Below, piece by piece: positions 1,842-61,832 of a stretch of 64,000 bases of DNA. A model generated the notes under the pieces. It was given only the letters and a program-made list of their open reading frames with translations. It had not been told where the DNA came from and ran no database searches. Position 1 is the first letter of the stretch; each line of letters starts with the position of its first letter. Position numbers and translations under genes: made by a program. Source of the stretch: Candidatus Venteria ishoeyi (GTDB lineage: Bacteria > Pseudomonadota > Gammaproteobacteria > Beggiatoales > Beggiatoaceae); assembly GCF_030378065.1 (NCBI RefSeq), contig NZ_JAUCGJ010000003.1:62001-126000 (forward strand), read 5' to 3'.

Positions 1842-2024
1842 ATGGCAAATATGGAGTTACTACGCTTAAAACAGGTTTTGGAAATCGTACCAGCAAGCCG
1901 GGCAACAATTTGGCGTTGGACGCGAGACGGCAAATTTCCAAAACCTATCAAACTATCAGAACGCTGCACGGCTTGGAAAAAATCAGATATTGAATCCTGG
2001 ATTGATGAGAGGGCAGCAGCATGA
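1842..2024 (+). CDS. AlpA-like regulator / excisionase
   Basis: A 60-residue MerR-type winged-helix protein of the AlpA family. These proteins regulate the integrase or act as excisionases in P4-like elements. The features are LRLKQVLEIVPASRATIWRW (helix-turn-helix), then GKFPKPIKLSE and a closing W-x-SDIESWI segment. The open frame extends upstream to 1797, but ATG 1842 is chosen because GAGG sits 8-11 bases before it and the family starts at this point. Its place between the integrase and the primase fits control of excision. Confidence 0.85.
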   Translation: MANMELLRLKQVLEIVPASRATIWRWTRDGKFPKPIKLSERCTAWKKSDIESWIDERAAA

Positions 2025-2034
2025 ATTATAGGCA

Positions 2035-2069
2035 TAAAAAAACCAGAAAGGGTGCCAGCCCGATCTGGT
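2035..2069 (-). terminator. Possible minus-strand terminator after alpA-like gene
   Basis: An A7 tract is followed by ACCAGA (2042-2047) and TCTGGT (2064-2069). Read on the minus strand this is a hairpin followed by a T7 tract, the form of an intrinsic terminator. It could block antisense transcription into the integrase region. The stem is only 6 bp, so the call is weak. Confidence 0.35.
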
Positions 2070-2140
2070 CAATGTGTCTTTTGTAGTCGATAACACAAAC
2101 AGCATACACTTTGTTAAGTGCTTATATTATATCAATAAAT

Positions 2141-2149
2141 AGTGGTTAC
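2141..2149 (-). repeat. Iteron-like 9-mer upstream of the primase gene
   Basis: AGTGGTTAC is the reverse complement of GTAACCACT, the unit repeated inside the 3' end of the primase gene. It lies between AATAAATA and TTATTTATT arms in the 5' region of the primase gene. This suggests the protein that binds the array may also act at its own promoter. A single 9-mer could be chance. Confidence 0.4.
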
Positions 2150-2229
2150 AGCCATTATTTATTGGTACTTATAAGTATAACATGGTGTTTCATGCTGTTT
2201 ATATCTAACTTTTTATAGGATATAAATCC

Positions 2230-5262: not shown

Positions 5263-5459
5263 ACTTAACCCCAAAAGAACAGCGCAAATTAAACAGAGGG
5301 CGCATGTTGATTATGCGGAAAATTCATGTGGAGCGATTAAAGCGGTTTTTAGATCATGGCGGGAAACCACCTGGTGAATTAATGCCACACGAAAAAAAGC
5401 GTATTAATGCTTATATGGCTGTTGTTGAGCAAGATATTAAACAGCAGCGCTTACAGTAA
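5259..5459 (+). CDS. Small basic hypothetical protein
   Basis: A 66-residue, Lys/Arg-rich helical protein starting on the ATGA that ends the primase gene, so it is translationally coupled to it. No family is recognised. The charge and length suggest a nucleic-acid binding or accessory replication protein, but this is only inference. Confidence 0.6.
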   Translation: MNLTPKEQRKLNRGRMLIMRKIHVERLKRFLDHGGKPPGELMPHEKKRINAYMAVVEQDIKQQRLQ

Positions 5460-5564
5460 TTAACCAATGTCTGAACCTTGCATTTATGCGGGTTCAGGAT
5501 GCAGTCTGGCTAAATCAGCCAGCCTGCTTATATAGGTTTTATTGATTAGAACAAGGACAAAACA

Positions 5565-5960
5565 ATGCCATTCCAAAAAGGCCAGAGCGGAAACCCCAGC
5601 GGGAGACCACCGGGAATCCAGGATAAACGTGCAGCATTACGGGATTTGCTCGATCCCCATGCGGATGAACTGGTAAAGCAAGCTGTCAAGATGGCGCTGG
5701 AAGGTGACACGGCAGCATTAAAGCTGTGTCTTGATAGGTTGATCCCGCCAATGAAAACTGCACCAGTAAATATACCAGGTTTGGCTGTTGGCAGTCTGGC
5801 TGAACGCGGCGCGGCGGTACTGGATGCCCTGGGAGGTGGTGAAATAGAACCAGCCCAAGGTGCGGTGTTATTGTCTGCCTTGCAATCACAGGCACGGATT
5901 GTTGAGGTATCTGAAATTATTGAGCGGCTTGAGGTATTGGAAAATGAACGGCACAATTAA
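5565..5960 (+). CDS. DUF5681-type small protein
   Basis: A 131-residue protein beginning with the FQKGQSGNPSGRPPG segment diagnostic of DUF5681, a domain common in phage and island genomes and often near packaging genes. The rest is helical with a Gly/Ala-rich middle. No large terminase or portal gene is present here, so a packaging role cannot be supported from this locus. AAGGAC lies upstream of ATG 5565, and the stop is overlapped by the next gene. Confidence 0.65.
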   Translation: MPFQKGQSGNPSGRPPGIQDKRAALRDLLDPHADELVKQAVKMALEGDTAALKLCLDRLIPPMKTAPVNIPGLAVGSLAERGAAVLDALGGGEIEPAQGAVLLSALQSQARIVEVSEIIERLEVLENERHN

Positions 5961-6150
5961 AAGTAGGCTGGATGCCCTGGAAATAAAAAAAGGCACGGGT
6001 GATAATGCGCCGATCATCGTTTGCCTTAACCAGACTAAAGACCAGGCAGTAGCAGAATATGAAGCGCGTCACGGGGTTGTGGTTGGGGATAATGCTATTT
6101 GTATTCAATTCAAAGGCGTAGACGGGAGTGTGCATGAACAGCAGCATTAA
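5944..6150 (+). CDS. Small hypothetical protein, first of a tandem pair
   Basis: The 68-residue product starts at ATG 5944, inside the end of the DUF5681 gene and preceded by GAGG. The longer open frame back to 5860 has no site for initiation. Its N terminus MNGTIKSRLDALE matches that of the next gene (MNSSIKTRLKALE), so the two may be related by duplication. The C-terminal half resembles short phage proteins that bind unknown partners. Function unknown. Confidence 0.5.
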   Translation: MNGTIKSRLDALEIKKGTGDNAPIIVCLNQTKDQAVAEYEARHGVVVGDNAICIQFKGVDGSVHEQQH

Positions 6151-6406
6151 AACCCGGTTAAAGGCTTTGGAAGGAGAACAAGGTCAGTTCCTTGATATAT
6201 GGCTTAAACTCGAAGGTATAGTTATCTCAATCTCTTATTTTGACGGCGCAGACTTTGGCAAAGAAGCAGCACGGCAGCGCGTGAGCAAGTTAAGGACTCA
6301 GGAAGAATTCAGCGAGTTTATGCGCGATACTCTAAAGCTGGACACGATAAGTGCTGACCACAAAACCACCGCACTGGCGGTGCTTGCCAACAAGTTGCCG
6401 GGATAA
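6134..6406 (+). CDS. Small hypothetical protein, second of a tandem pair
   Basis: A 90-residue acidic helical protein. ATG 6134 is preferred over GTG 6128 because GGGAG lies at 6124-6128. It overlaps the preceding gene by 17 bp. The first 13 residues mirror those of the preceding protein and then the sequences diverge. It is the last plus-strand gene before the convergent restriction operon. Function unknown. Confidence 0.5.
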   Translation: MNSSIKTRLKALEGEQGQFLDIWLKLEGIVISISYFDGADFGKEAARQRVSKLRTQEEFSEFMRDTLKLDTISADHKTTALAVLANKLPG

Positions 6407-6591
6407 CCTCCCTTCAAATTAGCTTTATTCAATGGCACTAAGGCCTCTGCTTTGATGTTGCTGGCTTTATTAACAATGATTTAATACAGTCCATAATCTA
6501 TTTCAGAGTAGAATGGATTGCTTAATGGGTATAAAAAACCTATAAAAAATAGGTATAAAAAAATCAATTTCTTGCACATATCAAGCAGGAC

Positions 6592-6625
6592 ATGTATAAA
6601 TTTTTGGTATTTTTATACATATTTT
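6592..6625. terminator. Convergent (bidirectional) terminator
   Basis: ATGTATAAA (6592-6600) and TTTATACAT (6612-6620) form a 9-bp AT-rich hairpin with ATTTTT after it on the plus strand. It lies between the end of the plus-strand accessory genes and the end of the minus-strand fic gene. The surrounding 6407-6632 is AT-rich and holds no other gene. Confidence 0.45.
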
Positions 6626-6632
6626 TCACTGA

Positions 6633-7703
6633 TTACCTGATAAAAATTTTATATAAAGGTTTATTCAGATAATAGTTGCTTCTACCTATTTTCAACTTCT
6701 CCAAAAATCCAGCTTCGACCAATTTATCCAGATAACTGGTGGCTGTCGCACGGGAAACCCGCAAATCATCCATGACAAATTCTATTTTGGTGTAAGGATG
6801 CTTAAACAGATTATTTAGTAAATCCTGACTGTATACTTTAGGCAGTTCAGCGCGAATTCTATGCTTATAATCCTGCATGAGCTGCTTAATATCATGCACC
6901 AGGTGGATGGTTTTCTGTGCGGTATCGGCAATGCCCTTTAACATAAACAAAACCCATGATTCCCAATCATTGGCATCACGCACTTGCTGCAAGTATTGAT
7001 AATAATCGTCTTTGTTTTCTATTACATAACGGCTCAGATATAAAATAGGAAGTTGCAGCAAATCCTTACAGACCAGATACAAAACATTGATAATCCGCCC
7101 TGTTCTGCCGTTACCGTCATAAAACGGGTGGATGCTCTCAAATTGATGGTGAATAACCGCCATTTTAATCAGCGGATCAACGTCCGATAATTCATCATTA
7201 TTGATGTACTGTTCCAGATTATCCATTAAGCGGTTGATGTCATCGGGATGCTGCGGCGGGGTGTATACCGTTTCCCCGGTTCGCTGATTTTTCAGTGCCG
7301 TTCCCGCCTGCCTGCGAAAGCCTGCGTTATTGCCTTCCAGTTCAGACTGAATTTGCTTGATGTGGTTCAGCGTCAAAATTTTACCGTGGCGCACCAGTTC
7401 AAAGCCGGTTCTCAGGGCATTGGCGTAGTTTTGCACTTCCTTGGTGGCGGTGTTGGCAAATACTTCGGTTTGCAGTTCAGCCCTGAATAACGCATCCTGC
7501 GTGGTGATGATGTTTTCCACGGCTGAGCTATCCCGCGCTTCCTGCAAAGTCAGGGTGTTGATTAAGATAGTCTCATTGGGGATGGTTGCCCCAACGCCTT
7601 TTAATTCCGCCAGATAACGATGCGCCAGCGCTGCCTGTTTCAACACCGCTTTGGTTTCGAGTTCCAGAGCTGGGGGCAGTGCTGCGGGTTGCCAGTCAGA
7701 CAT
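6633..7703 (-). CDS. Fic family protein (class II, self-inhibited) in the R-M operon
   Basis: This 356-residue Fic enzyme would transfer AMP, or another nucleotide moiety, from a nucleotide to a protein hydroxyl. The catalytic motif HPFYDGNGRTGR lies near residues 190-201 and has the essential His, Asn and both Arg. The N-terminal helix carries SSAVEN (59-64), matching the (S/T)xxxE(G/N) inhibitory motif of class II Fic proteins. The C terminus is a winged-helix segment (LFKHPYTKIEFVMDDLRVSR) of the kind found in DNA-associated Fic proteins. The gene starts 3 bases after the stop of the Type ISP enzyme, so the two are co-transcribed. Fic genes often sit in restriction loci, but the target is unknown. 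Confidence 0.9.
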   Translation of the reverse strand: MSDWQPAALPPALELETKAVLKQAALAHRYLAELKGVGATIPNETILINTLTLQEARDSSAVENIITTQDALFRAELQTEVFANTATKEVQNYANALRTGFELVRHGKILTLNHIKQIQSELEGNNAGFRRQAGTALKNQRTGETVYTPPQHPDDINRLMDNLEQYINNDELSDVDPLIKMAVIHHQFESIHPFYDGNGRTGRIINVLYLVCKDLLQLPILYLSRYVIENKDDYYQYLQQVRDANDWESWVLFMLKGIADTAQKTIHLVHDIKQLMQDYKHRIRAELPKVYSQDLLNNLFKHPYTKIEFVMDDLRVSRATATSYLDKLVEAGFLEKLKIGRSNYYLNKPLYKIFIR

Positions 7704-7706
7704 GGC

Positions 7707-10700
7707 TTAAACCTGCTCATTCAAAGGCGGCAGACTTTCCACAATCCGCACGCTTTCCAGACTCACCCGCACGATACGTTTAACCAGATCGATAATATAA
7801 CGCGGGTCTTCCGACCAGTCATTAGGGTCATTTTTGATGCCGCTTTTTTTATCGATGGTGACCTGGTAGCGGTCTATGAGCCATTCCAATGCCGGTTTGC
7901 CGTTGACGATATAGTCATAAGCCTGCAAGGGAATATTACTTAAAATGACACGGCTGTTATAGATAAGCGTGGTTTTATCCTTTTCCTTGCCTTTTTTGGC
8001 AAACTGCATTTTCTGGACGCGGTAAAAACTGGTTTTATCTTCCAGCATATCCGCTGCACTTTCCTGCACCGGGTACGGGTCTATGCTTTCATAGTTGAGA
8101 TGCCAGTCGGCTAATTCCTGACCTGCCTTGCTGAATGCCCAAAAATCCTGGGCAAAGGGAATACGCGGCAGTTCTTTTTTGAGATTGGCGGCAAAACGGG
8201 TTTTGTATTCAGGGGAATGCATTAGCCCATAAACATAATAAAAAATGTCTTTTTTGCTGATGCTGGTGTCGGTATAGGTTTTTTGGAATTCAGCCAGAAT
8301 GCTGTCGGGGATGGCATCCTGTTTGACGTATTCATCAGCAATGCCAAACAGATCACCGCTACTTTCTATTTTTTCGTAGGTGTAGAGGGGGAAACCCTGA
8401 CCGCCAGAATGTTGCATATTTAAATCTGGTAATGTATCTACTATCAGTGCTGAAGAATCTTTTCCACCTGCCCCAATACCACTAACATAAATCACAAGAT
8501 TTTTTAATTCAGGCTTTGGGAAAATCCGAGGCATTTGATAACGTCTATCATTAAAATTTTTATCAAAATAAACCCATTGTTTGCAATAAGGGCGGTACAT
8601 ATCACATACGACTGATGATTTATTCAATGAATGGGTTATTTCTTTTCCTAAATTATTTTTTAAACTAACTGACCAGCTTATTTTAGTCGCATCGGTATTA
8701 ATGAATTTATCAACAGAAATACTCTTATTCTGCAAGGCTTTGTATTCAGCGACCTGTGCATTATAAAAATCAATCATTTGTTGCATATTATTTTCAAGTT
8801 GTTGCTTATTAAAATGATATGTCCAGGTATCACGACTTGTTGCAATCCCTCTTGAATAATCACTAAATATAACTTTTCCCGCTTTATCTTTTTTATCTCC
8901 CAATGATATGAATTTATCAAATGCAGGATCGCGCTGATTAATCCAGTCATGGGCAGCATTGGGCTTTAAGGTTTTCCAGTCAATCCCCTGTATGCTGTGA
9001 AAATCATCAATAATATTCAGCTTTTCTTTTTGACTGAGATAATCACCAATATCATGGTAAAACAGTTGGCAGTTTTTGCCTTTTCCTGGATTTTTGACCA
9101 ATAAAGTAATGGCAATAGGGGCGCGACTGCCTGAACCAAAAATTTTGCCACCTTCTTTGCGTGATGTTTCGCCTGATGTACGTTGATTACCCCGCAAGTT
9201 AAAACAATAAATGCTATTAAATTCATCGGTTAAAGACTGGCGCAAACCATCCATTGCGTTGCTGTCAATAAATGATCCATTGGTGACAAAGCAGACTATG
9301 CCTTTATCCGCAATCCGATCACTTGCCCAACGAATTGCCCGGATATAAGAATCATACAAACTATTTTTATTGGTGGCGCTGGAACAGGCAGCGTAAGTAT
9401 CCCGAATACCGCTATCCAAATTGGGATATTGGAGATTTTTATTATTGTCATTTTCGCTGGTTTGCTTTGCTGAATAGGGCGGATTGCCCACAATCACCTG
9501 TATCACTTGTTTATTTTGCTGTTTGGCGCGGTCGCTGTTGGCTGGCAGCATGGCATCAACCCAGCCCTGCATATCACCCCGGCCTTCCGTCATCTGGAAG
9601 GTGTCGGTTAAGACGATGCCGTTAAACGGCTGGTAATCTCCCCCCGCCACGCCATGATAAGCCGCTTCAATATTTACCGCCGCAATGTAATAAGCCAGCA
9701 ATACCAGTTCATTGGCATGGAGTTCTTGCTGATATTTGCGCTGTAAATCTTCAGGTTTGATTAAGCCGCTTTGCAGCAGACGCACCATAAACGTGCCCGT
9801 ACCAGTGAAGGGGTCGAGAATATGTACGCCTTCATCACTTAACCCCTTGCCAAACTCTTGCTGTAAGGCAGCATCGGTGCTGTGAATAATGAAATCCACC
9901 ACTTCAGTGGGGGTGTAAACAATGCCCAGACGTTCCGCCATGCGCGGGAAGGCAGCGCGAAAAAACTTATCATACAGTTCAACAATGATTTTTTGTTTGC
10001 CAGTGGCGTTGTCAATGCCTTTTGCGCGCATTTTGACGCTGGCATAAAATCTTTCCAGGGTGGCGGTTTCCTTGCGTAAAGATTGTTCGTGCAGCACGTC
10101 CAGCATGGCTTGCATGGCCTGGGATACGGGGTTGTGTTGGGTAAAGTCGTAATCTTCAAACAGGGCATCAAATACGGGTTGGGTAATCAGGTGTTGTGCC
10201 AGCATTTCTATGGCATCATCGGTGCTGATGGCGGGGTTCAGATTGTTTCGCAGACCTTGCAAGAAGGTATCAAAAGTGGCTTTGTGTTGGGGCAGGCTTT
10301 CCAGTAAGGCTTTAATGCGGCTGATGTGGCGTTCGGCAATGGCGGCAATATCCTTTGCCCAGTCTTCCCAATAACGGCGCTGTCCACATTTTTGCACGAT
10401 TTTGGCATAGATGGCATCGCGCCATTCGTCAATATGGGGAAAGTTCAGCACACCTTGCTGGCCTGTATCATTGCTTTTATTTGTATCGTTTTCTGATGGT
10501 GTGCCGCCGTCATCATCAGCATCCCCACCCGTTACGCCAATCACCTGGATATTATCAGGTTTGCTTTGGTTCAGTTCCAGTTTATTAACCGTGGCATTAA
10601 AGCGGTCATCATGGGCGCGTAAGGCTTGCAGCACCTGCCACACGACTTTGTATTTTTTATTGTCTCTTAAGGCTTCTTCCGGCGTTAAGTCTGCGGGTAT

Positions 10701-12554
10701 GCCAATGGGCAGAATAATATAACCGTATTGTTTGCCATCGGCTTTACGCATCACCCGGCCTACAGATTGCACCACGTCCACAACTGAATTGCGCGGGGTC
10801 AGGAACATAACGGCATCCAGCGCGGGTACGTCTACCCCTTCCGATAAACAACGGGCATTAGAGAGTATACGGCAGGTATTGCCTTGTGATTCCGCTTTAA
10901 GCCAGTCCAGGCGTTGATTACGCGCCAGGGCGTTAAAGGTGCCGTCTACGTGGTCAACTTCGCAGTGTAACAAGTTATCATTGTCTTCATGGGTCTGGTG
11001 GTATTCGCTGACTATATCGGCAAACTGGCTGGTAATTTGTTTGGATGCCTTGATATTTTGACAAAAAGCCACGGCGCGGCGCATGGGGCTGTTATCCCCT
11101 GCCAGCACGTTACCGTCCAGGTCACGCGCCATGCGTTTGGATAAGCCGTTCCAGCAGCCGGTGATTTTAACCGCGTCTTCCAGGTTTAATTGGTTATCGT
11201 CATCCGCCAGTTGCGTTTGAAAAGTTTTGCTGACATATTTTTCATCAACTGCCAGTACCATGACCTTGTAATCCGATAATAAGTTGCTGCTGACCGCTTC
11301 AGAGAAGCCTAAACGGTGGAACTCTTTACCATACAGGCTTTCATCATCCATAGAACACAGGCTGGCATTATTTTCCTGGGCTTTGCTTTTGGCGCTGTCA
11401 TCATACAGGCGCGGGGTTGCCGTCATATACAGGCGTTTTTTGCCCCGGACATAGTTTTCATCGTGAATGCGCACGAATTTGGATTCTTCTTTATCCGCCA
11501 GGGTTGCGCCTGTGGTGCGGTGGGCTTCATCGCAGATAATCAAATCAAATTCAGGGGTGTCGTATTGTTGCTGGGATTCAGCAATCACCTGGATGGATTG
11601 GTAGGTTGAAAACACAACATTTAACTGGCGTTTGCCTGCCTGTTTTATGTGGCTTGCCAGTTTTTCCGGGTCGGTGGTGGCTGGTAAGGCTAAATCATGG
11701 GTTTTAATATCTTCCTGGGTTTTACCGACTTTGGTATCAGAACACACGGTAAAGTTATGCAGGCTTAACTGGCATTCCGCTGACCATTCACGCAGGGTTT
11801 GCGATAACAGGGAAATGGACGGCACCAGAAACAAAACAAAGCCGTGATCCCCTGTACTTTTTGCCATTTCTTCGGCAATTTTTAATGAAGTAAAGGTTTT
11901 TCCCGTGCCACAAGCCATAATCAGCTTACCCCGGTCGGCCTGTTCAAAACCCGCCACCGTATTATCAACTGCTTTATGCAGGACTTCATTTTGTTTGCTG
12001 AAACCTGCTATCACCTTTTCCAGTGCACTTTGCTGGTGGGGGCGTAATTGTTTTTTGGGCTTTAAGCTCAGGTGACCAGGCTTTTCCCAGATAAACTGTT
12101 CCCAGTCTATAGGGCTTTGGGCTAAATCCTGAACGCGCAGGCGATTTACGGCAATTTGCTGGTTTTCCAGTGCTTTTTCTGCATTTTTGCCCCATTTATC
12201 TGTGGTGGAAACAATCAAACGGCTGCTGAACGGGGCTTTGCCGGATGCAGTAAAAAAGGAGTCTATATCTGATTTTTGCAGGCTGTGCGCAGGATCGTAA
12301 AACTTGCACTGGATGGCGCAATATTCCCCGGTATCCCGTTCCTGTGCCACTAAATCTATGCCGGTATCTCCCCCATCGCGTCCAGGCCAATCTGACCATA
12401 GCCAGACATCGCTGTATTTTTCCTGATACAGCGGATCGGTTTTTAAGTAGGCCAGCATTAAACGCTCGAATTTATCCCCCTGGTTGCGGGTGGATGTGGC
12501 TGTTTGCCGGTAGTCTTCCAGAACGTTGTGAATTGTGGTCATTTTGCGTGGCAT
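7707..12554 (-). CDS. Type ISP single-polypeptide restriction-modification enzyme (LlaGI-like)
   Basis: This 1615-residue protein combines restriction and modification in one chain. An Mrr-like PD-(D/E)xK nuclease is at the N terminus (GIDLVA with Asp near 67, then IQCKFY with Lys 84). A superfamily 2 helicase/translocase follows, with Walker A ACGTGKTF near 213-222 and IICDEAH near 337. After a coupler comes a gamma-type N6-adenine methylase with DPFTGTGTF near 908 and NPPY near 1023, then a C-terminal target-recognition region. Known Type ISP enzymes (LlaGI, LlaBIII) have the same order and are about 1580 residues long. All catalytic motifs look intact. Starts at 12554 or 12542 are possible, and neither has a strong ribosome binding site. 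Confidence 0.9.
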   Translation of the reverse strand: MPRKMTTIHNVLEDYRQTATSTRNQGDKFERLMLAYLKTDPLYQEKYSDVWLWSDWPGRDGGDTGIDLVAQERDTGEYCAIQCKFYDPAHSLQKSDIDSFFTASGKAPFSSRLIVSTTDKWGKNAEKALENQQIAVNRLRVQDLAQSPIDWEQFIWEKPGHLSLKPKKQLRPHQQSALEKVIAGFSKQNEVLHKAVDNTVAGFEQADRGKLIMACGTGKTFTSLKIAEEMAKSTGDHGFVLFLVPSISLLSQTLREWSAECQLSLHNFTVCSDTKVGKTQEDIKTHDLALPATTDPEKLASHIKQAGKRQLNVVFSTYQSIQVIAESQQQYDTPEFDLIICDEAHRTTGATLADKEESKFVRIHDENYVRGKKRLYMTATPRLYDDSAKSKAQENNASLCSMDDESLYGKEFHRLGFSEAVSSNLLSDYKVMVLAVDEKYVSKTFQTQLADDDNQLNLEDAVKITGCWNGLSKRMARDLDGNVLAGDNSPMRRAVAFCQNIKASKQITSQFADIVSEYHQTHEDNDNLLHCEVDHVDGTFNALARNQRLDWLKAESQGNTCRILSNARCLSEGVDVPALDAVMFLTPRNSVVDVVQSVGRVMRKADGKQYGYIILPIGIPADLTPEEALRDNKKYKVVWQVLQALRAHDDRFNATVNKLELNQSKPDNIQVIGVTGGDADDDGGTPSENDTNKSNDTGQQGVLNFPHIDEWRDAIYAKIVQKCGQRRYWEDWAKDIAAIAERHISRIKALLESLPQHKATFDTFLQGLRNNLNPAISTDDAIEMLAQHLITQPVFDALFEDYDFTQHNPVSQAMQAMLDVLHEQSLRKETATLERFYASVKMRAKGIDNATGKQKIIVELYDKFFRAAFPRMAERLGIVYTPTEVVDFIIHSTDAALQQEFGKGLSDEGVHILDPFTGTGTFMVRLLQSGLIKPEDLQRKYQQELHANELVLLAYYIAAVNIEAAYHGVAGGDYQPFNGIVLTDTFQMTEGRGDMQGWVDAMLPANSDRAKQQNKQVIQVIVGNPPYSAKQTSENDNNKNLQYPNLDSGIRDTYAACSSATNKNSLYDSYIRAIRWASDRIADKGIVCFVTNGSFIDSNAMDGLRQSLTDEFNSIYCFNLRGNQRTSGETSRKEGGKIFGSGSRAPIAITLLVKNPGKGKNCQLFYHDIGDYLSQKEKLNIIDDFHSIQGIDWKTLKPNAAHDWINQRDPAFDKFISLGDKKDKAGKVIFSDYSRGIATSRDTWTYHFNKQQLENNMQQMIDFYNAQVAEYKALQNKSISVDKFINTDATKISWSVSLKNNLGKEITHSLNKSSVVCDMYRPYCKQWVYFDKNFNDRRYQMPRIFPKPELKNLVIYVSGIGAGGKDSSALIVDTLPDLNMQHSGGQGFPLYTYEKIESSGDLFGIADEYVKQDAIPDSILAEFQKTYTDTSISKKDIFYYVYGLMHSPEYKTRFAANLKKELPRIPFAQDFWAFSKAGQELADWHLNYESIDPYPVQESAADMLEDKTSFYRVQKMQFAKKGKEKDKTTLIYNSRVILSNIPLQAYDYIVNGKPALEWLIDRYQVTIDKKSGIKNDPNDWSEDPRYIIDLVKRIVRVSLESVRIVESLPPLNEQV

Positions 12555-12589
12555 TCCGTTGATAGGGGGCTGACAATGTAAAAAATTAT

Positions 12590-12847
12590 TTATTTGTTTG
12601 TAGAAACAGGTTTGTTTTTCAGTATCTCAATACCTGCACTTATTACCGCTTCAATCGCTTTTTGCATATTTGGTTTGCCTGCTCCGCGTCCGCTGACATT
12701 TACCCAGCCTCTATCTTTGGCGATAGCCTCAAGCTGTTTTATATCGTCTTGCGCAAGCCAGCAATTAAATTGCTTCTTGTTATCCGCGTCTTTGCGCTCC
12801 CGATAACGCGCATGGCGTTCTTTGCCTGTTGCTGCTGTCTTTTTCAT
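12590..12847 (-). CDS. Small DNA-binding-like protein upstream of the R-M operon
   Basis: An 85-residue basic protein (KERHARYRERK, then DDIKQLEAIAKDRGW, then AGKPNMQKAIEAVISAGIEIL). I chose the ATG at 12847; a longer frame reaches 12865. The protein is a paralogue of the divergent gene at 12952: both share an xLxxDIKxLExxAKxRGW helix and a GRxAGxxNxQxAI segment. The fold could be ribbon-helix-helix-like, and the position suggests a regulator of the restriction operon. A 12-bp box matching those in the divergent promoter overlaps its last codons, just before the Type ISP gene. Function inferred, not recognised. Confidence 0.6.
   Translation of the reverse strand: MKKTAATGKERHARYRERKDADNKKQFNCWLAQDDIKQLEAIAKDRGWVNVSGRGAGKPNMQKAIEAVISAGIEILKNKPVSTNK
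12596..12607 (+). promoter_or_regulatory. Operator-like box before the Type ISP gene
   Basis: GTTTGTAGAAAC at this position is identical to the box at 12899-12910. It lies 42 bp upstream of the Type ISP start codon at 12554 and overlaps the 3' end of the small regulator-like gene. This placement would allow the same protein to control the divergent promoters and the restriction gene. Confidence 0.5.
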
Positions 12848-12872
12848 CCGCACATTATCCAACATTCAGTCT

Positions 12873-12939
12873 GTTTATAGAAATATTTAATTGAAACTGT
12901 TTGTAGAAACGACTATTATTTAATTTTGTTTCTATAAAC
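12873..12939. promoter_or_regulatory. Divergent operator region with three 12-bp boxes
   Basis: Three related 12-mers lie between the divergent small genes: GTTTATAGAAAT (12873-12884), GTTTGTAGAAAC (12899-12910) and GTTTCTATAAAC (12928-12939). The last is the reverse complement of GTTTATAGAAAC. Each box is nearly symmetrical. This is the pattern expected for operators of a small dimeric repressor, most simply one of the two flanking gene products. Confidence 0.6.
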
Positions 12940-12951
12940 GAGGTATTTCAC

Positions 12952-13176
12952 ATGGCAACAGAACGAAAAATTCTGAATGCTCGACACCGCGCCAAACGCA
13001 GCACAGATCACACCTTAAAAAATGTTTGGATACCAAGCGTAGATATTAAGCGACTGGAAAAGCTTGCAAAAAAACGGGGCTGGCTGGCAGCAACCGGGCG
13101 CAATGCCGGACAAGTTAATTTCCAGCAGGCAATTAATGAAGTTTTGAAGGCTGGTTTATCAGCTTTGAAGGCATAA
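12952..13176 (+). CDS. Small DNA-binding-like protein, paralogue of the divergent gene
   Basis: A 74-residue basic protein (ILNARHRAKRS, then VDIKRLEKLAKKRGW, then NAGQVNFQQAINEVLKAG). It aligns over most of its length with the minus-strand protein encoded at 12590-12847. AGG lies upstream of ATG 12952, directly after the third operator-like box. It may be a regulator or antagonist of its neighbour. The family is not recognised. Confidence 0.65.
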   Translation: MATERKILNARHRAKRSTDHTLKNVWIPSVDIKRLEKLAKKRGWLAATGRNAGQVNFQQAINEVLKAGLSALKA

Positions 13177-13216
13177 AAAAACGGCGCTGTCATCCGACCA
13201 AAGACCGACAGCACCG
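13175..13216 (-). terminator. Minus-strand terminator between island genes
   Basis: CGGCGCTGTC (13182-13191) pairs with GACAGCACCG (13207-13216), with one G-T pair on the minus strand. On that strand the hairpin is followed by T7. It has the same layout (stop codon, A7, hairpin) as the structure at 2035-2069. It could stop antisense transcription or act as an RNA leader for the gene at 13248. Confidence 0.45.
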
Positions 13217-13247
13217 CATCACTCAAACCCAAGAAAGGTATAGAGCA

Positions 13248-13496
13248 ATGAATAGTATAACAAAAAACAGGCAGGCTATTAAGCAGGCAAATAAATGGCG
13301 CACAGACTACAACCGGCACGGGCATGGCGGTGTTGTTGTGGTATTTAATGGTGTTGTGAATGGCTGGGTAAATAAGTTACGTAACCCTGAACAATGGCAG
13401 CCAGGCTGCATTGCTGTGGATGAACAGCAAGATACCTGGATTGCTTGTGGTGGTAATGCCCAAAGTGGTGCAGAACGCTGGGAGGCTGTGCAATGA
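13248..13496 (+). CDS. Hypothetical protein
   Basis: An 82-residue protein with a basic N terminus (KNRQAIKQANKWR) and a beta-rich remainder (GGVVVVFNGVVNGWV, WIACGGNAQ). GAAAGG precedes ATG 13248. Its stop overlaps the start of the membrane protein gene at 13493 by 4 bp, so the two are coupled. No family is recognised. Confidence 0.6.
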   Translation: MNSITKNRQAIKQANKWRTDYNRHGHGGVVVVFNGVVNGWVNKLRNPEQWQPGCIAVDEQQDTWIACGGNAQSGAERWEAVQ

Positions 13497-15043
13497 ATAC
13501 CATTTACGCATGGTTTTATCAGGCAATGCCGTTTATTTTAGCCGGTCTGTTTATATTGGGGCTTTATGCCTTCATGCGCACCAGAAAGCCGGGTAATGAA
13601 GCCATGCCCAGCAGCGTGGTAACTTTAACTGGTGTGGCTGGCGCATTGGCGGCGCTGGTCAGTATGGCGTTTTCCTATTCCTTTGCTGTCAGCCTGGGCG
13701 ACTCACTGTTTATGAAGCTGGCAATGGTGTTTCTATTCTTTTCCTGGCAGATAGCAGAATTTACAGCAGCCTTTTGGTTTGGGCATAGTCTCAATTCATT
13801 GAGCGTGTCAAAAACCATCATTGCTATGATCCTGTTTTTGGGTGGCGTGACTATCAACTGGACGGCGGGACAATCTTTTCTATCAGGGCGCATAGATGAT
13901 ATTGAATCTGAAAGATTACGCCAGAGTGATGCTTACCAATCAGCACAGGTGCAACGCCAAAATGCGCAGAATAAAGCCGCAAGTCTGGCAATTTCCCCAG
14001 CACAATATCAGGATGCAGCAACAGCAGTGCAGGCACTTGAATCAGACTTAAACCAATACAAAAACAGTCAGGCTAAAAACTCAGGCGGTGCCAGCGTGGG
14101 AACTGTCCAGGCAGTGGTTGCCCGGTATGGTTGCAATGGGTATTACAGTAAATACTGTGTCGAGCAAGAGCGCATAAAATCGGAAATGATCCAGCACCAG
14201 AAAACAATCCAGCAGTGGCAAGCGTACCAAGCGGCACAAAGTCACGCGCAGGGATTGGCAGCGCAACCACTACCCAGCGGCGCGACGGATGCAACCTTGC
14301 CTGGCATCAGAAACTTATCAGAAACGCTGGGGATTCCAGTTGCTACTGTGAAGGCATATTTCAACTCATTACTGGGCGCGGCTTGTGAGGTGGCGGCATT
14401 AGCCATGCTTTGGTTATTTGGCGGTTTTGTGGCGCAGATTCGCCAAGATGAAGGCCAGCAGATGCCACCGGCAACAGTCACTAGGCCGGGTGATCCTATT
14501 CCAGCCATGAGCAGTGGTGGCAGAATCAACACAGACGGGCTAATAGAAGGCCATGCCGGGGAATGTGTATTAAACGCCATGGCAACAAGCTGGCTGGATG
14601 TTAATTATCCTGACTGGTTGGATAACTTAAACCTGGGCGCATTAGCCTTGCCCGTAGTCAATGACTATAAGCCAATGCCTAAAGGCAATGACTCCAGTTC
14701 AATGCCTAATAAGCCAATGACTAAAGGCAATGAGTTAAGCCAAGCCGATGCTGAATTGATAGAAGATTATTTCCCAGGGATACTGGACAATTTAAGAAAG
14801 CAAGGCGGGGAAGCTGCAATACCTGGCTTTATTGAAGTTGCCAGACAAAAGAAAGCAGAAGGCAAGCCCATATCGGCACAAGGCTATGATTCTAAAGATA
14901 AGCGTACAGTAGGCGGTACTTATAACTGTGAGTCATGTGGTGATGAATTCAAGGCAAAAACAACCTGGCACCGTTTCTGTGCAGCGTGTGGCGCTGAACG
15001 TAAAAAAGGCGTTTTAAGAGCAAAGGCAAAAGGGAATAAATAA
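13493..15043 (+). CDS. Membrane protein with coiled coil and C-terminal zinc ribbon
   Basis: A 516-residue protein of unknown function. Three to four membrane helices occupy about residues 10-130 (for example MPFILAGLFILGLYAF and AMILFLGGVTIN). A Gln/Ala-rich helical region with a Cys pair follows (YGCNGYYSKYCVEQ). One more membrane helix lies near 290-315 (ACEVAALAMLWLFGG). The C-terminal third is soluble, contains short PMPKGN/PMTKGN repeats, and ends in a zinc ribbon (CESCGDEF, then CAACG). The architecture recalls phage or plasmid membrane proteins with DNA-contacting tails, but no family can be named. A terminator follows directly. Confidence 0.7.
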   Translation: MNTIYAWFYQAMPFILAGLFILGLYAFMRTRKPGNEAMPSSVVTLTGVAGALAALVSMAFSYSFAVSLGDSLFMKLAMVFLFFSWQIAEFTAAFWFGHSLNSLSVSKTIIAMILFLGGVTINWTAGQSFLSGRIDDIESERLRQSDAYQSAQVQRQNAQNKAASLAISPAQYQDAATAVQALESDLNQYKNSQAKNSGGASVGTVQAVVARYGCNGYYSKYCVEQERIKSEMIQHQKTIQQWQAYQAAQSHAQGLAAQPLPSGATDATLPGIRNLSETLGIPVATVKAYFNSLLGAACEVAALAMLWLFGGFVAQIRQDEGQQMPPATVTRPGDPIPAMSSGGRINTDGLIEGHAGECVLNAMATSWLDVNYPDWLDNLNLGALALPVVNDYKPMPKGNDSSSMPNKPMTKGNELSQADAELIEDYFPGILDNLRKQGGEAAIPGFIEVARQKKAEGKPISAQGYDSKDKRTVGGTYNCESCGDEFKAKTTWHRFCAACGAERKKGVLRAKAKGNK

Positions 15044-15047
15044 AAGC

Positions 15048-15075
15048 AAACCGCCTGTAATCGTGGGCGGTTTTT
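15048..15075 (+). terminator. Intrinsic terminator after the membrane protein gene
   Basis: AAACCGCC (15048-15055) pairs with GGCGGTTT (15066-15073) and is followed by a T tract. It ends the 13248-15043 transcription unit near the right end of the island. Confidence 0.85.
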
Positions 15076-15089
15076 CAAGGTGAAATATC

Positions 15090-15323
15090 ATGTATAAAAA
15101 AACACAATCTCAAGCTTCACAAAAAAAATTGATGGTATTTATGCTGGTACTTTATTTATTTGAAATAACTTTATACTTTGTAAACAGTGCATTACCGTTG
15201 CTTTTCGGATTCGTTCACCCGCTCCACAATCTCATTTCAGAACGTTTCATAATATCCCACAAGCAAAGCAATAAAAGGGATTCCCGCCTTTCTGTTGTTT
15301 CACTCGACTATCAAGGATTTTAA
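15090..15323 (+). CDS. Small membrane peptide running through the right attachment repeat
   Basis: A 77-residue open frame with AAGGTGA well placed before ATG 15090. It has a hydrophobic helix (MVFMLVLYLFEITLYFV) followed by a tail encoded by the attachment repeat and the first bases of the insertion sequence. The tail is therefore produced by the junction and would differ in the excised circle. It could be a real island gene with a junction-dependent C terminus, or a chance frame. Confidence 0.35.
   Translation: MYKKTQSQASQKKLMVFMLVLYLFEITLYFVNSALPLLFGFVHPLHNLISERFIISHKQSNKRDSRLSVVSLDYQGF
15212..15302 (+). repeat. attR-type 91-bp direct repeat
   Basis: Exact copy of 187-277, including the last 11 bases of the tRNA-Gly acceptor and T arm plus CCA. 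It marks the right end of the island. The identity stops where the adjacent insertion sequence begins, so the original repeat may have been longer. Confidence 0.9.
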
Positions 15324-17820: not shown

Positions 17821-20800
17821 ATGAAAACACCACCTTCACCTCATTTATCTGCTTTTTGCAAGCCGCAGGCAAAAGTCATTTTTGATGATCAGATAACAGC
17901 GGCTGCAAGTTGGAAGTCCTGTCCAGTGGATATTCGCAGCTTACACAGTGAAGCGCGCAGTCAGTTTCAGGCCATGTATCACAACTTGTGTCGCCCGGAA
18001 ATCAACCCGCAGATATTGGCCTCAAACCCCAGAATATTGTATTTATCTGGTCAGGCCGGGGTAGGTAAAAGTCATTTATTACAGTATTTTCGCCAGCAGG
18101 TGCATCAACAGGGACGCGGTTGTTGCGTTAACATGTCCTTGCCGCTGCTAATGCAAAATCCTGATGATTATTTGTTGAATCAGGTGATCGAGGGTCTGGA
18201 AAAACCCTGGCAGGAAAGTGCGCAGACCTCTGCTTTATTGCGGGTATCCCATGCGCTGTTGGAAAATTATCAACGTATTCCAACCAGTGCTTTGCAGATT
18301 TTCCGCCAGGGACAGTTTAATGATCACAGTTTGGGGCTGGCAACCCAGGCTTTGTGTCAACAGCTTTGCAAACACCCGGAGTTCCAGGATTTAGAGCCAG
18401 AATTATTACGTGTGTTGTTGTATTTACAACGTCATGAGCCACGCTATCGGCGGCGGGCCTTAAAATATCTGCGCTGCGAGCCACTGAATAAAACTGACTT
18501 AAAAATTCTGGGTGGTATGCCTGCCACAGCCCTTAAAACCAAACCCGGTATACGCCTGGCACAATTAAGTCAGGTAATTTTTCAAGTCAGCGGCGGACCT
18601 TTGGTGTTATGCCTGGATGAACTGGAAAATATCAGCAGCCCGGTACCGCTCAGTGCTTTTATGCAATCTTTGTTGCTGTTGGCACAGCAGGCACCGCGTG
18701 TATTGCTGCTACTTAGCTGTCTGGAGAAGGCTTATTTGGAAACTTGTCCGGCGAGTCTGCGCAAGTGCTTACACAGCCATATGACAAGCCTGGATTTGTT
18801 ACCGGGTTGCTCAGAACAGGAAGCCAGGGACTTGATTGCACAACGTTTAAAAACCTATTTTAAGCACTTGCAACTGCAAACCAAGGCCAATGATCCGTTT
18901 TACCCGCTGAATATTGCAAATCTGGTGCTGACATCAACGCAAACACCGCGTGATATTCTGCAAGCCTGCCAACGGCAACAAGGAAAACATCAAACGGGAC
19001 AACAAGCAGCGTCACTATCACAAAAACCGCTGCAATATCCACCTGAACAACAAGCACTGGAAAAACAATGGCAGGATTTTATTGCGCGTTTACATCCCGT
19101 CTTATCACGCTCCCTGCCGGAGCAAGCGACTGGCCTGCAAGCATTATTACTGCACAGCCTGTCGCAATACCTGCAAGAACAGCGTTTAACAAAACAATGT
19201 CAGGTACAAACTCAAGACAGTGACATACTGCTGCTGCGTGGTGAGCAGAATACGCCTTTACGCCTGCGTTTATGTAATCAACGCCTGCAAAACGGTGACT
19301 TGACACGCCAATTACAAAATTTACTGGATGATGCCAGTTTGCCTATAGCAAATCAGGATGACAGTATCCCGATTGCAATACGACATAGTATTTTCAGTCG
19401 CAGCGCCAGTAACAGCGTGGCCTTAAAACTTGGTGAAATCCGTCGCGCCGGGGGCATGGTGGTCATCCTGGAAGACAGTGACTGGCGCACCCTGTGGTTT
19501 ATGCGGCAGTTTTATCAGCAAAAATACCAGCAAAAAGGATTTCAATCCTGGCTGCAACACCGGCAACCCCTGTCACAACTGCCAGGATTACAACGTTTAA
19601 CCTCATTTTTTGAGGATTTAAATCATGCAGTCGTTTCTCAGCCAGAAGCAGCGCATAAAACCAGCAAGCCGGTTATGCCATCACCCGCACCTGCTTCAAC
19701 GCAACAAGACATACAAAGACCTTCCCAATTTTTAAAACCTGGAAGCACTGCAATAAAAACAAAACCGGAAAAGTTATTGGTAAAGCCTCATGAACCAAGG
19801 CAGAGCAAAGCACCCGCGACAGAAGCCCAATTATACCTGCCCAGCACCAGTGGCGAGCCACTCAGCGTACAACTGGGGCGTAGCGCCGATAAAATGCAAC
19901 AACGACAAGTTGATCTGCGCGCGCATATCGGCATTCTGGAAGAAAATGGACACAGCGCCTGGCAACTCTCTGCCAGCTTGATGGAACAACTTTTATTACG
20001 TGATATTCCGGTCTTGCTGGTTGATACGCAGGGGCGTTTTAAGCATTATGCGCAGCCAGCGCAGTGGCAACAGCCTGCTGATCCAGTGCAAGCGCAACAA
20101 TTTCAGGCTTTGCGTGATCATCTGCAAGTACAATATTATGCGCCCGGTCAACACCCGGATAACTTACAGGACATCAGTCTGCCCGTGCAGGTTGCCGGAT
20201 TAGGGCGCTTGCCGCGTAATGAGCGCATTGATTATTGTCGGGCCAACAGTGCCATGCTGGTTGCCTTAATACGCGAGCAAGGCCAATCGATTGCAACGGC
20301 GGCACAAAAATGGTTAAGTCAGGCCTTGTACGCGCTGACGGAATATTATCATGATGAAGCGGTGACGCTGGTGCAATTAAAAGTTTTTTTACGCCAGCAC
20401 CAAACACGTCAGGCATTGCCGGAAGCTGATTTTATTAATTTATTGCAAGGGTTGAAACAACTCCCTGTCAATATTGGTTTAATGACATCCGAGCACGCCA
20501 GCAGCACCGGCTCCACAACCTTGCGCAGTCAACTTAACCAAGGTCAGGCCGCCAACCTGATTTTACTGGATTTACAGCACTGCACGCCCGCCCAGCAAAA
20601 TTACTGGGTGTGGCACAGTCTGCTGAGTCTGAATAATCACGCAGAGCAATTTCCCGGCACGGCCTTGCGCCAGGTCTGCATACTTGATGATGCGATAGAT
20701 GGGTTGTCACCTTACCAGCAGATACGCCAGAGCGGCTTATTAACGCAGCTATTAAAACGCAGTCGCATGGCTGGCGTCAGTCTGGTTTTTAACAGTGTAT

Positions 20801-21096
20801 TTAGCAACCACAGGGCAGAAAGCTGGGGGCTGTTATTTGAGCAGCAGGAAGCTGTAGAATTAGGCAGTTGGTTTATTGGCAGCATGTCTTTAGCCAAAAA
20901 TCTGGAAAAATTACATACCTTGTTTGTAGGGACGGGGCTTGACCCCAAGCGGATTTTGCCAGGCTTGCAAACCCATGGTTTTTATATCCGCAAAGCAGGG
21001 GAAACCTTACGCTTTACGGGTAAACCGGCGCTGGTTAAACCAGCGTTGATGCAAAGTACACTGACTGCGACATCAATAAATGCAGCAAATAGATAA
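17821..21096 (+). CDS. AAA ATPase fused to a degenerate HerA-like domain
   Basis: A 1091-residue protein. The N-terminal half is an Orc/STAND-like AAA ATPase with Walker A GQAGVGKS (77-84) and Walker B LVLCLDELEN (about 260-269). A Pro-rich linker spans about 600-665. The C-terminal part follows the HerA/FtsK pattern: strand DIPVLLVDTQGRF, later NLILLDLQHCTPAQQNYWV, QVCILDDAIDGL and KRSRMAGVSLVFNS. However, the expected P-loop (GxTGSGKS) reads EENGHSAW and the DEAH-like box reads DDAI, so this half should not hydrolyse ATP. It is followed by an OLD-like ATPase on the same strand. I do not recognise the pair as a named system. Defence or DNA repair roles are plausible. Confidence 0.75.
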   Translation: MKTPPSPHLSAFCKPQAKVIFDDQITAAASWKSCPVDIRSLHSEARSQFQAMYHNLCRPEINPQILASNPRILYLSGQAGVGKSHLLQYFRQQVHQQGRGCCVNMSLPLLMQNPDDYLLNQVIEGLEKPWQESAQTSALLRVSHALLENYQRIPTSALQIFRQGQFNDHSLGLATQALCQQLCKHPEFQDLEPELLRVLLYLQRHEPRYRRRALKYLRCEPLNKTDLKILGGMPATALKTKPGIRLAQLSQVIFQVSGGPLVLCLDELENISSPVPLSAFMQSLLLLAQQAPRVLLLLSCLEKAYLETCPASLRKCLHSHMTSLDLLPGCSEQEARDLIAQRLKTYFKHLQLQTKANDPFYPLNIANLVLTSTQTPRDILQACQRQQGKHQTGQQAASLSQKPLQYPPEQQALEKQWQDFIARLHPVLSRSLPEQATGLQALLLHSLSQYLQEQRLTKQCQVQTQDSDILLLRGEQNTPLRLRLCNQRLQNGDLTRQLQNLLDDASLPIANQDDSIPIAIRHSIFSRSASNSVALKLGEIRRAGGMVVILEDSDWRTLWFMRQFYQQKYQQKGFQSWLQHRQPLSQLPGLQRLTSFFEDLNHAVVSQPEAAHKTSKPVMPSPAPASTQQDIQRPSQFLKPGSTAIKTKPEKLLVKPHEPRQSKAPATEAQLYLPSTSGEPLSVQLGRSADKMQQRQVDLRAHIGILEENGHSAWQLSASLMEQLLLRDIPVLLVDTQGRFKHYAQPAQWQQPADPVQAQQFQALRDHLQVQYYAPGQHPDNLQDISLPVQVAGLGRLPRNERIDYCRANSAMLVALIREQGQSIATAAQKWLSQALYALTEYYHDEAVTLVQLKVFLRQHQTRQALPEADFINLLQGLKQLPVNIGLMTSEHASSTGSTTLRSQLNQGQAANLILLDLQHCTPAQQNYWVWHSLLSLNNHAEQFPGTALRQVCILDDAIDGLSPYQQIRQSGLLTQLLKRSRMAGVSLVFNSVFSNHRAESWGLLFEQQEAVELGSWFIGSMSLAKNLEKLHTLFVGTGLDPKRILPGLQTHGFYIRKAGETLRFTGKPALVKPALMQSTLTATSINAANR

Positions 21097-21290
21097 TGTG
21101 GTTTCCAATTTTGCCGGAGATGGATTTGCAGTCTTACATTTGGAACATTTCATTTCATTCTCCGTAAGCTTATAATGAAAACCAGCGTGAAGAAAAAGCG
21201 GTTTTTTCGTATTTCAAATCTCTAAAACCTACGAAACAGAAGCTTTTGCATAACACCAATTCATCCTATCAGTTTATTATTATCTCTTCT

Positions 21291-23258
21291 ATGCAACTAC
21301 TTAATTTCCAGGTTTCCAATTATCGCTCAATTAATGACAGCGGTTTAATTGATGTCAACCCCCGCACCATGCTGGTGGGGCGTAATGAAAGCGGCAAAAC
21401 CAACTTACTGTTGGCGCTGCAAAGTCTCAATCCGCCAGCAGGCATTAAAAAGCTGTCTTATGTTAAAGACTTTCCTCGCTGGCGTAATATTTCAGCGTAT
21501 CAGGATAGTCTGATTGTGGTGAAAACCCGCTGGGCTTTATCCACTGCGGAACAACAACAATTACTGGAAATTTTCCCCAGAACCGGATTTGGCGCAGAAC
21601 CCGTTACAGAACTAGTCATCAGCCGTGATTATACGACTAAACGTCAGATTCATTTTGTAAATCTGCCGCCACTGGAAATCGACAGCGCGGCAAGCGACAG
21701 GCAGCGCCGCAGCATTGAGCGCAGCATTAAAAACGCGCTGAAAGATGCGCTGGATAAACGCAGCATAGAAAAAGCTGGACGTGCCTTAAATGTGTTGAGT
21801 CATGAAATTGCAACCGGACAAGATGATCCTGCGGAGTGGGCGCTGCGGGTGTTGAAGGTCATCGGCGTGTTTCAGCGCTCCTTCGATAGCTTAAAATTGT
21901 CCTTGCCAGACAGTAGCAAAACGCAGTTGCAGGCGTTGAGCAAACATGCCGAGCAAATTGCGGCGGATGCCCCGCAACAAAAACAGGCGCGGATTTGGGT
22001 CAGTACAAACCTGCCGGTATTTGTGTATCTGAATGAATATCCAAAACTGGCAGGACATCAGAACTTAAAAGTTTTTCTGCAACACGCTGAGCAAAGTCGT
22101 ATGAGCGAGGCGGAGCAGAACTTTGCGCGTTTGTGCAAAGTCGCTGAACTGGAACCGGCAAAATTATTAAAATCGCTGCACAGCGATCATCAACAGCGAC
22201 AACTGCTGACCAACCGCGCCAGCGCAATTGTTACCCGCAAACTGCGTAAACTCTGGCGTGATCGTCCGTTAAAAGTACGCTTTCACGCCGATGCCGAACA
22301 TTTTGACACGCTGATTTCAGAACCTGATGATGTGTATGATGTTGAGGTCAATTTAGACGAGCGCAGCCGTGGTTTTCGCTGGTTCTTCTCCTTTTATATC
22401 ACTTTTGCCGCCGACACCACTGAGGGGCTGGCCAGTAATGCCATTGTGTTGCTGGATGAACCAGGTATGCATTTACACGCCCACGCACAGCGTGACTTGC
22501 TGGATCATTTTATTCACGATTTTGATTTACCAGTTTTATTTACCACCCATTCTCCATTTATGATTCCGCAGGAAGAAGTGAGTAGTGTACGCACCGTGGA
22601 TATTGATCCAGAGCACGGCACCTGGGTCAGTAATCAACCCCAGGCACGTCCTGCGCATTTAAAGCATGACAGTCGCACCCTGTTTCCCTTGCAGGCTGCG
22701 CTGGCTTATGAGCAAATCAACGCTTTGTTTGCGCAACGCCCGTGTTTATTGGTGCCTTCACTGGCAGAAGCGATCATGCTGGAAGCGATTTATGTCTATT
22801 TGCAGGAGCAAGGTAAAAGACTGCCAGCGCTGGACATCATACCTGGCGCAGGTACGCATAAAATCGCGCATATGGCCGCCTTATTAGGCGTACAAGCCGC
22901 GCAATTACGCATACTGGAAACCCACAAAATGGATTTAGCCCCAGACCATGTGGCTTTGCCCGCAAAGGCTAAGAATATTGCAGCCTTACTGCCTGATGAG
23001 TTATTGCATGAATGGGTTTGCCAGGCCCATAAGCAACTGCCGGGTGAACCGCCACCGCTATTGTATAAAGAAACCAGCGCAGACGGTTATCTGGATGCCT
23101 TAACGCCTTATGTACGGTTTTACCATGAGCGTGAGCAGGTTTTTCAGCATTTACAACTGGCAAAAATCTTTATGTTGGTGCTGGGGCAAAATCCACAGCA
23201 GGTTTTATCTGAAACAAATATCCAGTTATTTGAAAAATTTTTTCATATTGTCATATAA
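21291..23258 (+). CDS. OLD-like ABC-type ATPase with degenerate Toprim
   Basis: A 655-residue protein of the OLD/RecF type. The ATPase core is complete: Walker A GRNESGKT (30-37), a signature-like ERSRGFRWFFSF, Walker B VLLDEPGMHLH (about 385-395) and the H-loop TTHSPF near 417. The C-terminal part aligns with an OLD Toprim (CLLVPSLAEAIMLEA, then DIIPGAGTHKI). The metal-binding Glu of the usual LVEG is replaced (LVPS), which predicts loss of nuclease activity. ATG 21291 is chosen because the family starts there; a TTG-initiated frame reaches 21246. No clear ribosome binding site is present. A TATAAT at about 21171 may give it its own promoter. Confidence 0.8.
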   Translation: MQLLNFQVSNYRSINDSGLIDVNPRTMLVGRNESGKTNLLLALQSLNPPAGIKKLSYVKDFPRWRNISAYQDSLIVVKTRWALSTAEQQQLLEIFPRTGFGAEPVTELVISRDYTTKRQIHFVNLPPLEIDSAASDRQRRSIERSIKNALKDALDKRSIEKAGRALNVLSHEIATGQDDPAEWALRVLKVIGVFQRSFDSLKLSLPDSSKTQLQALSKHAEQIAADAPQQKQARIWVSTNLPVFVYLNEYPKLAGHQNLKVFLQHAEQSRMSEAEQNFARLCKVAELEPAKLLKSLHSDHQQRQLLTNRASAIVTRKLRKLWRDRPLKVRFHADAEHFDTLISEPDDVYDVEVNLDERSRGFRWFFSFYITFAADTTEGLASNAIVLLDEPGMHLHAHAQRDLLDHFIHDFDLPVLFTTHSPFMIPQEEVSSVRTVDIDPEHGTWVSNQPQARPAHLKHDSRTLFPLQAALAYEQINALFAQRPCLLVPSLAEAIMLEAIYVYLQEQGKRLPALDIIPGAGTHKIAHMAALLGVQAAQLRILETHKMDLAPDHVALPAKAKNIAALLPDELLHEWVCQAHKQLPGEPPPLLYKETSADGYLDALTPYVRFYHEREQVFQHLQLAKIFMLVLGQNPQQVLSETNIQLFEKFFHIVI

Positions 23259-60812: not shown

Positions 60813-61832
<1,020 letters not shown>

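What the first reader, a model, noticed from the sequence alone, without database searches (positions are those of the whole stretch)
17821..23258. Unnamed two-ATPase module: AAA/pseudo-HerA fusion plus OLD-like protein with inactivated Toprim
Two large adjacent plus-strand genes encode an AAA ATPase fused to a HerA-like domain that has lost its P-loop (EENGHSAW) and acidic box (DDAI), and an OLD-type ATPase whose Toprim has lost its metal-binding Glu (LVPS for LVEG). HerA and OLD proteins each occur in defence pairs (HerA with Sir2 or NurA, OLD with UvrD in Gabija), but a pair with degenerate cores in both is not one I know. It could be a sensing or loading complex that needs another effector, or a DNA-repair module.
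Basis: partly seen in the sequence, partly recalled or inferred. Interest (0 to 1): 0.62.

Follow-up and report, generated by a model that had tools for sequence, protein, structure and literature searches.

The report
Orc-HerA fusion beside eroded OLD gene
Two neighbouring bacterial genes that look derived from anti-virus machinery have each kept one ATP-using engine but lost the working parts of their DNA-pumping or DNA-cutting half; they come from two separate known families and, in the genomes checked, do not travel as a pair.

Summary
Gene A (17821-21096, 1091 aa) has an intact Orc/Cdc6-type AAA+ ATPase, a middle domain shaped like an inactive nuclease plus winged helix, and a HerA/FtsK domain whose P-loop and sensor motif are gone; the Walker B Asp survives. 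Twelve full-length relatives from Alphaproteobacteria-like genomes all have intact HerA motifs and all sit directly behind a ~380-aa winged-helix-like gene that A lacks. The architecture matches the published Orc/Cdc6 'HerA/FtsK capture' class (PMC10853773); a dead HerA half is the new twist. Gene B (start ATG 21291, 655 aa) is a Class-1-like OLD protein with an intact ABC ATPase and a Toprim that lost its metal ligands. Its nearest intact relatives are stand-alone prophage genes. Toprim erosion began before B split from its sister gene in another genus, and happened independently in a third.

The interpretation as one new two-ATPase module is not supported: A and B homologues were never found together outside this window. 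Best reading: two independently derived anti-invader ATPases, each stripped of its DNA-processing half, kept in frame with host-like codon usage, probably acting as nucleic-acid sensors or scaffolds. Gradual decay is the main rival.

The parts
17821..21096 (+). Gene A, 1091 aa: Orc/Cdc6-type AAA+ ATPase - middle inactive-nuclease-like/winged-helix region - degenerate HerA/FtsK domain
17929..18870 (+). Active-looking AAA+ ATPase, aa 37-350, Orc/Cdc6-like
   Evidence: Pfam AAA_16 3.2e-08; structure match to yeast ORC/Cdc6 7tji Z 13.9 and human ORC 7jpo Z 13.5
18049..18072 (+). Intact Walker A GQAGVGKS of the AAA+ domain, aa 77-84
   Evidence: alignment with 12 relatives
19042..19632 (+). Middle domain, aa 408-604: helix-3 strands-helix-strand-helix-strand then helices, as in an inactive PD-(D/E)XK nuclease plus winged helix (inferred)
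   Evidence: secondary structure of the model; no E-x-K motif seen; not searched as a separate domain
19888..21045 (+). HerA/FtsK-like domain, aa 690-1075, with a four-helix insert about aa 799-876
19939..19965 (+). Lost HerA P-loop: EENGHSAWQ in place of GGSGSGKTT
20686..20691 (+). HerA Walker B: D956 kept, catalytic Glu replaced by D957
21291..23258 (+). Gene B, 655 aa, Class-1-like OLD protein; ORF listed from TTG 21246
   Evidence: PADLOC Old 3.4e-18; 28-sequence alignment; model pLDDT 85.6
21378..21401 (+). Intact Walker A GRNESGKT of B, aa 30-37
22449..22463 (+). Intact Walker B LLDEP of B, aa 387-391
22740..23015 (+). Eroded Toprim core of B, aa 484-575: E489P, DxD first Asp lost, E564A/D565A

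Best explanation
A is a derivative of the lineage of Orc/Cdc6 - inactive nuclease - HerA fusions (HerA/FtsK capture class) whose DNA-pump domain has lost its ATP-binding P-loop and whose usual winged-helix partner gene is absent. B is a Class-1-like OLD ATPase, of prophage-cargo ancestry, whose Toprim nuclease has eroded. They are independent neighbours. Each most likely works as a nucleotide-switched nucleic-acid or invader sensor/scaffold: the AAA+ part of A, or the ABC ATPase of B, binds and hydrolyses ATP and changes shape, while the dead HerA or Toprim half serves as docking surface or is vestigial. Shown here: ancestry, intact ATPase motifs, selective loss of the second catalytic domain, absence of co-occurrence in the sampled loci. 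Inferred: anti-invader role, sensor/scaffold mode, ATP hydrolysis.
For: Full-length homology of A to fusions with intact HerA and a fixed upstream partner. HerA match to the DndH C-domain and AAA match to ORC. Published class with the same domain order, a four-helix HerA insert and multi-wHTH partner genes (PMC10853773). B: Old is the best PADLOC family; 23 viral-contig relatives, several beside an integrase. Window B and G006 are sisters (support 1.0), joined to prophage genes with an intact Toprim. Window-G006 identity is 55.7% in the ATPase but 29.8% in the Toprim, against 56.5% and 59.6% in the intact pair L082-L085. No co-occurrence. Host-like codon usage in both genes and in both dead domains. 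Precedent: E. coli YbjD keeps its phage phenotype with the Toprim deleted (PMC13261556).
Against: A has no close relative, so constraint on it cannot be measured. HerA is the most conserved domain in the active family (69-76% against 52-60% for AAA) but not in the window (about 24% against 23%), which also fits relaxed selection. The middle domain and the partner-gene type were not tested by separate structure searches. A role in defence rests on family context only.
Confidence: 0.55

Rival explanations
1. Both genes are decaying relics of defence genes: catalytic halves lost, partner gene lost, frames still open.
For: Selective erosion of catalytic positions; missing winged-helix partner near A and none detected in the genome (weak test); Toprim evolving faster than the ATPase; A found in no other genome of the class sample.
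Against: 1091 and 655 codons remain open despite about 50% (B) and 75% (A) divergence from the nearest relatives; ATPase motifs are intact in both; codon usage of the dead domains equals that of the live ones; Toprim loss recurs independently in G009 with its ATPase kept.
Confidence: 0.25
2. A and B form one functional two-gene complex: a sensing or loading complex that lost both effectors and needs another.
For: Same strand, adjacent, no terminator-like site listed between them; both lost the DNA-processing half.
Against: No co-occurrence in any other sampled locus; 150-195 bp gap; each family has a different usual context.
Confidence: 0.13
3. A is a housekeeping chromosome-maintenance protein rather than a defence protein.
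For: In several alphaproteobacteria-like relatives the locus recurs beside the same CAP-domain and cell-wall genes, like a conserved chromosomal locus.
Against: Patchy: 17 of 130 genomes in that order, no full-length copy in the class of the window beyond this genome; the nearest described class is anti-invader.
Confidence: 0.12

Closest known systems
Orc/Cdc6-HerA 'HerA/FtsK capture' systems (PMC10853773)
   Same: Orc/Cdc6 AAA+ first, an inactive nuclease-like domain, then HerA with a four-helix insert; relatives carry a separate winged-helix-type gene
   Different: HerA P-loop and sensor lost; no winged-helix partner gene; no active nuclease next door
Class 1 OLD proteins (P2 Old, Thermus OLD 6p74, E. 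coli YbjD)
   Same: ABC ATPase plus C-terminal Toprim; stand-alone gene family; no UvrD helicase beside it
   Different: Toprim metal ligands replaced (E489P, first Asp of DxD, E564A/D565A); 655 aa, longer than Thermus OLD (528 aa)
DndH C-terminal HerA domain (7es4)
   Same: HerA/FtsK fold, Z 21.5
   Different: Different domain architecture; window copy lacks the ATPase motifs
SIR2-HerA (Nezha), HerA-NurA and HerA-DUF4297
   Same: HerA fold
   Different: No SIR2, NurA or DUF4297 gene beside it and no working HerA

Membership tests
Orc/Cdc6-HerA capture class | Orc/Cdc6-type AAA+ with Walker motifs | tested here: met
   motifs intact; ORC match Z 13.9, rmsd 3.7, 163 residues
Orc/Cdc6-HerA capture class | Inactive nuclease domain between AAA+ and winged helix | tested here: inconclusive
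   strand/helix order fits but the domain was not searched alone
Orc/Cdc6-HerA capture class | HerA/FtsK fold present | tested here: met
Orc/Cdc6-HerA capture class | HerA with working P-loop and sensor Gln | tested here: not met
   EENGHSAWQ and FNSV
Orc/Cdc6-HerA capture class | Multi-winged-helix partner gene (subset of systems; fixed in the 12 closest full-length relatives) | tested here: not met
   no such gene beside A; none found in the genome with profile A3 (which lacked a positive control)
Class 1 OLD | ABC ATPase with Walker A/B and H-loop | tested here: met
Class 1 OLD | Stand-alone gene without UvrD-like helicase | tested here: met
   no helicase gene beside B in the window (and Pfam on flanking genes); relatives mostly alone
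Class 1 OLD | Toprim metal ligands (Ts OLD E377, D431, D433; D381, S478, E480) | tested here: not met
   E to P, first Asp lost, later Glu to Ala; only the ligand four residues on (E493) kept
Gabija (Class 2 OLD) | GajB helicase immediately downstream | tested here: not met
   downstream gene is a glycosyltransferase
SIR2-HerA / HerA-NurA | Active HerA plus SIR2 or NurA partner | tested here: not met
   HerA motifs lost; neighbours are DUF1015, OLD and a glycosyltransferase

The most novel reading that the evidence does not exclude
A and B are a true pair in which both the DNA pump and the nuclease have been converted to non-catalytic platforms, giving a two-ATPase sensor that acts without cutting or pumping DNA and signals to an unlinked effector.
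Probability: 0.1. Interest if true: 0.65.

Novelty: new variant of a known kind. Interest (0 to 1): 0.36.

Why it matters
If the genes are functional, they show that HerA-type pumps and OLD Toprim nucleases can be discarded while their partner ATPases are kept. That would make nuclease-free and pump-free action directly testable, in line with the YbjD result that the OLD Toprim is dispensable. The repeated Toprim loss in one bacterial family is a natural experiment for what the OLD ATPase does alone. The 12 intact Orc-HerA fusions with a fixed partner gene offer a conserved, apparently little-studied locus.

Tried and rejected
Pfam on the HerA half of A alone gave no HerA hit; homologues and structure were needed. 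Two genome-contig scans with single proteins found nothing, as did plasmid and phage record searches with A and a viral-contig scan with A. Search for another HerA motor in the genome that could work in trans: no PF01935 match. Empty-site test through the neighbouring DUF1015 gene: synteny around it is not conserved in the family, so uninformative. Promoter and terminator scan: no more sites than in shuffles. Idea that A-B belong to the integrative element on the left: rejected, the att repeats end at 15307. The paper library gave no description of a dead Orc-HerA fusion with the terms tried. VIA-align on A tests mainly the HerA part; the middle domain is untested by structure search.

Full report
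Observation. Gene A (17821-21096) and gene B (ORF 21246-23258, likely start ATG 21291) are real, same-strand and separated by 150-195 bp. Pfam gives AAA_16 for the N-terminus of A and AAA_15/AAA_21 for B; no HerA or Toprim family is recognised. PADLOC gives Old as best family for B (3.4e-18) and only weak hits for A, including the HerA-like mad8 (0.0023).

Ancestry of A. A single-sequence search of 398 genomes spread over the phylum found two full-length relatives of 1133 and 1188 aa. In these, Pfam recognises both AAA and HerA domains (DUF87 2.6e-13, HerA_C 7e-13 in L049). The three align end to end at about 25% identity. A profile search of 130 genomes in the order of one of them found 17 with the family. 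In the 12 full-length copies I read, every HerA domain has GGSGSGKTT, DRKGDL, MFDEADLYIP and LATQSPGD. The window has EENGHSAWQ, DTQGRF, ILDDAIDGLS and FNSVFSNH. Surrounding structural residues such as EQLLL-x-IPV, LLKR-x-R-x-AG and SWFIG are kept. All 12 copies lie directly downstream of a gene of about 365-430 aa (alignment A3) that I call winged-helix-like from its sequence pattern and the literature, not from a test. Shorter Orc-only relatives (G472, G432, G476) also sit next to a shorter gene of that kind. The window has no such gene beside A, and profile A3 found none in the genome.

Structure of A. The AlphaFold2 model has pLDDT 65.5 overall with good parts at about aa 40-340, 410-600 and 700-1040. 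VIA-align places aa 677-1067 on VirB4, the DndH C-domain (7es4, Z 21.5, rmsd 4.2, 311 residues) and HerA structures, and aa 39-330 on ORC/Cdc6 (7tji, Z 13.9). Four helices are inserted at aa 799-876. The middle region has the strand and helix order of a PD-(D/E)XK nuclease core followed by helices. This is the layout described for the Orc/Cdc6 HerA/FtsK capture systems: Orc/Cdc6 ATPase, inactive nuclease before a winged helix, HerA with a four-helix insert, and in a subset a separate protein of 2-4 winged helices (PMC10853773). A is therefore a derivative of that class with a dead pump. PF01935 finds no HerA anywhere in the 98.8%-complete genome, while all 14 control genomes ring, so an active HerA of this family is unlikely to help in trans.

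Ancestry of B. Profile A2 found 23 viral-contig loci and several genomes of the class. Most copies are single genes; several lie next to a phage integrase (L082, L084, L092, L100, L102). In family f1, relatives occur in G006 (52%) and G009 (33%), each without A. The family consensus is LLVEG-x-x-D, P-x-GG, VL-x-D and IEDLF, matching the Class 1 ligands mapped on Thermus OLD (PMC7049728). Of the window residues, E489 is P, the first Asp of DxD is lost, and E564 and D565 are Ala. G006 keeps E489 but lost the Asp; G009 keeps E489 and E-D but lost the Asp. The tree joins window and G006 (support 1.0), then the prophage genes L082/L085 with intact Toprims; G009 lies elsewhere, so its loss is independent. 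ATPase identity window-G006 is 55.7% but Toprim 29.8%, against 56.5% and 59.6% for L082-L085; G009-L088 shows 54.0% and 39.6%, against 46.8% and 52.2% for the intact pair L088-L103. Toprim constraint was thus weakened twice while the ATPase was kept. The B model (pLDDT 85.6) matches PtuA, GajA and Thermus OLD.

Are they a pair? HMMs of both families run over every ORF of all fetched loci find both only in the window itself and its own overlapping copies. Flanks were 3-10 kb and some contigs ended early, so rare linkage cannot be excluded. Neither family's usual context contains the other.

Function or decay. Both frames are open and codon adaptation of the AAA, HerA, ABC and Toprim stretches (0.73-0.76) equals that of core genes in the window (0.72-0.78), so the genes look long-resident and are not obvious pseudogenes. 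HerA is the best-conserved domain among active relatives (69-76% identity against 52-60% for AAA), but the window copy is equally distant in both (about 24% and 23%), which shows the HerA half lost extra constraint. I favour a retained sensor or scaffold role for the ATPase halves, helped by the YbjD precedent in which the Toprim is dispensable (PMC13261556), and give decay a quarter.

Context. A and B lie about 2.5 kb outside an integrative element at tRNA-Gly (104-nt repeats), between DUF1015 and glycosyltransferase genes. Around DUF1015, gene order is not conserved among relatives.

Noticed in passing
window 58839-60781: A Septu ptuA-ptuB pair (PADLOC PtuA 2.6e-106, PtuB 7.7e-65) sits between an acetolactate-synthase-type TPP enzyme gene plus a small 164-aa ORF (56212-58463, ilvI-ilvH by position) and ilvC (60816-61832), i.e. 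inside an ilv gene cluster.
   Followed up: partly
window 127-15307: Integrative element at tRNA-Gly with 104-nt direct repeats 179-282 and 15204-15307 (95%), carrying an integrase, a SoFic gene (6633-7703) and a Type IIG/ISP restriction-modification gene (7707-12554).
   Followed up: partly
L128-L137, L049, L050: Orc-HerA fusions with an intact pump recur in Alphaproteobacteria-like genomes behind a winged-helix-like gene, often beside the same CAP-domain gene: looks like a conserved chromosomal locus rather than a mobile island.
   Followed up: partly
L056, L057, L059: Relatives of the A AAA+ domain about 795 aa long in the window's own family start with what looks like a DEDD 3'-5' exonuclease domain.
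   Followed up: no
L082:7520-7993, L084:7520-7993, L085:7482-7991: A 157-169 aa gene lies about 7-9 bp upstream of the prophage OLD genes closest to B; absent in the window.
   Followed up: no
L005:1021-2883 (G009): A second, independently eroded Toprim in an OLD protein of the same bacterial family, with the ATPase intact.
   Followed up: partly
G000 whole genome: No DUF87/HerA (PF01935) match in the genome although all 14 control genomes ring.
   Followed up: no
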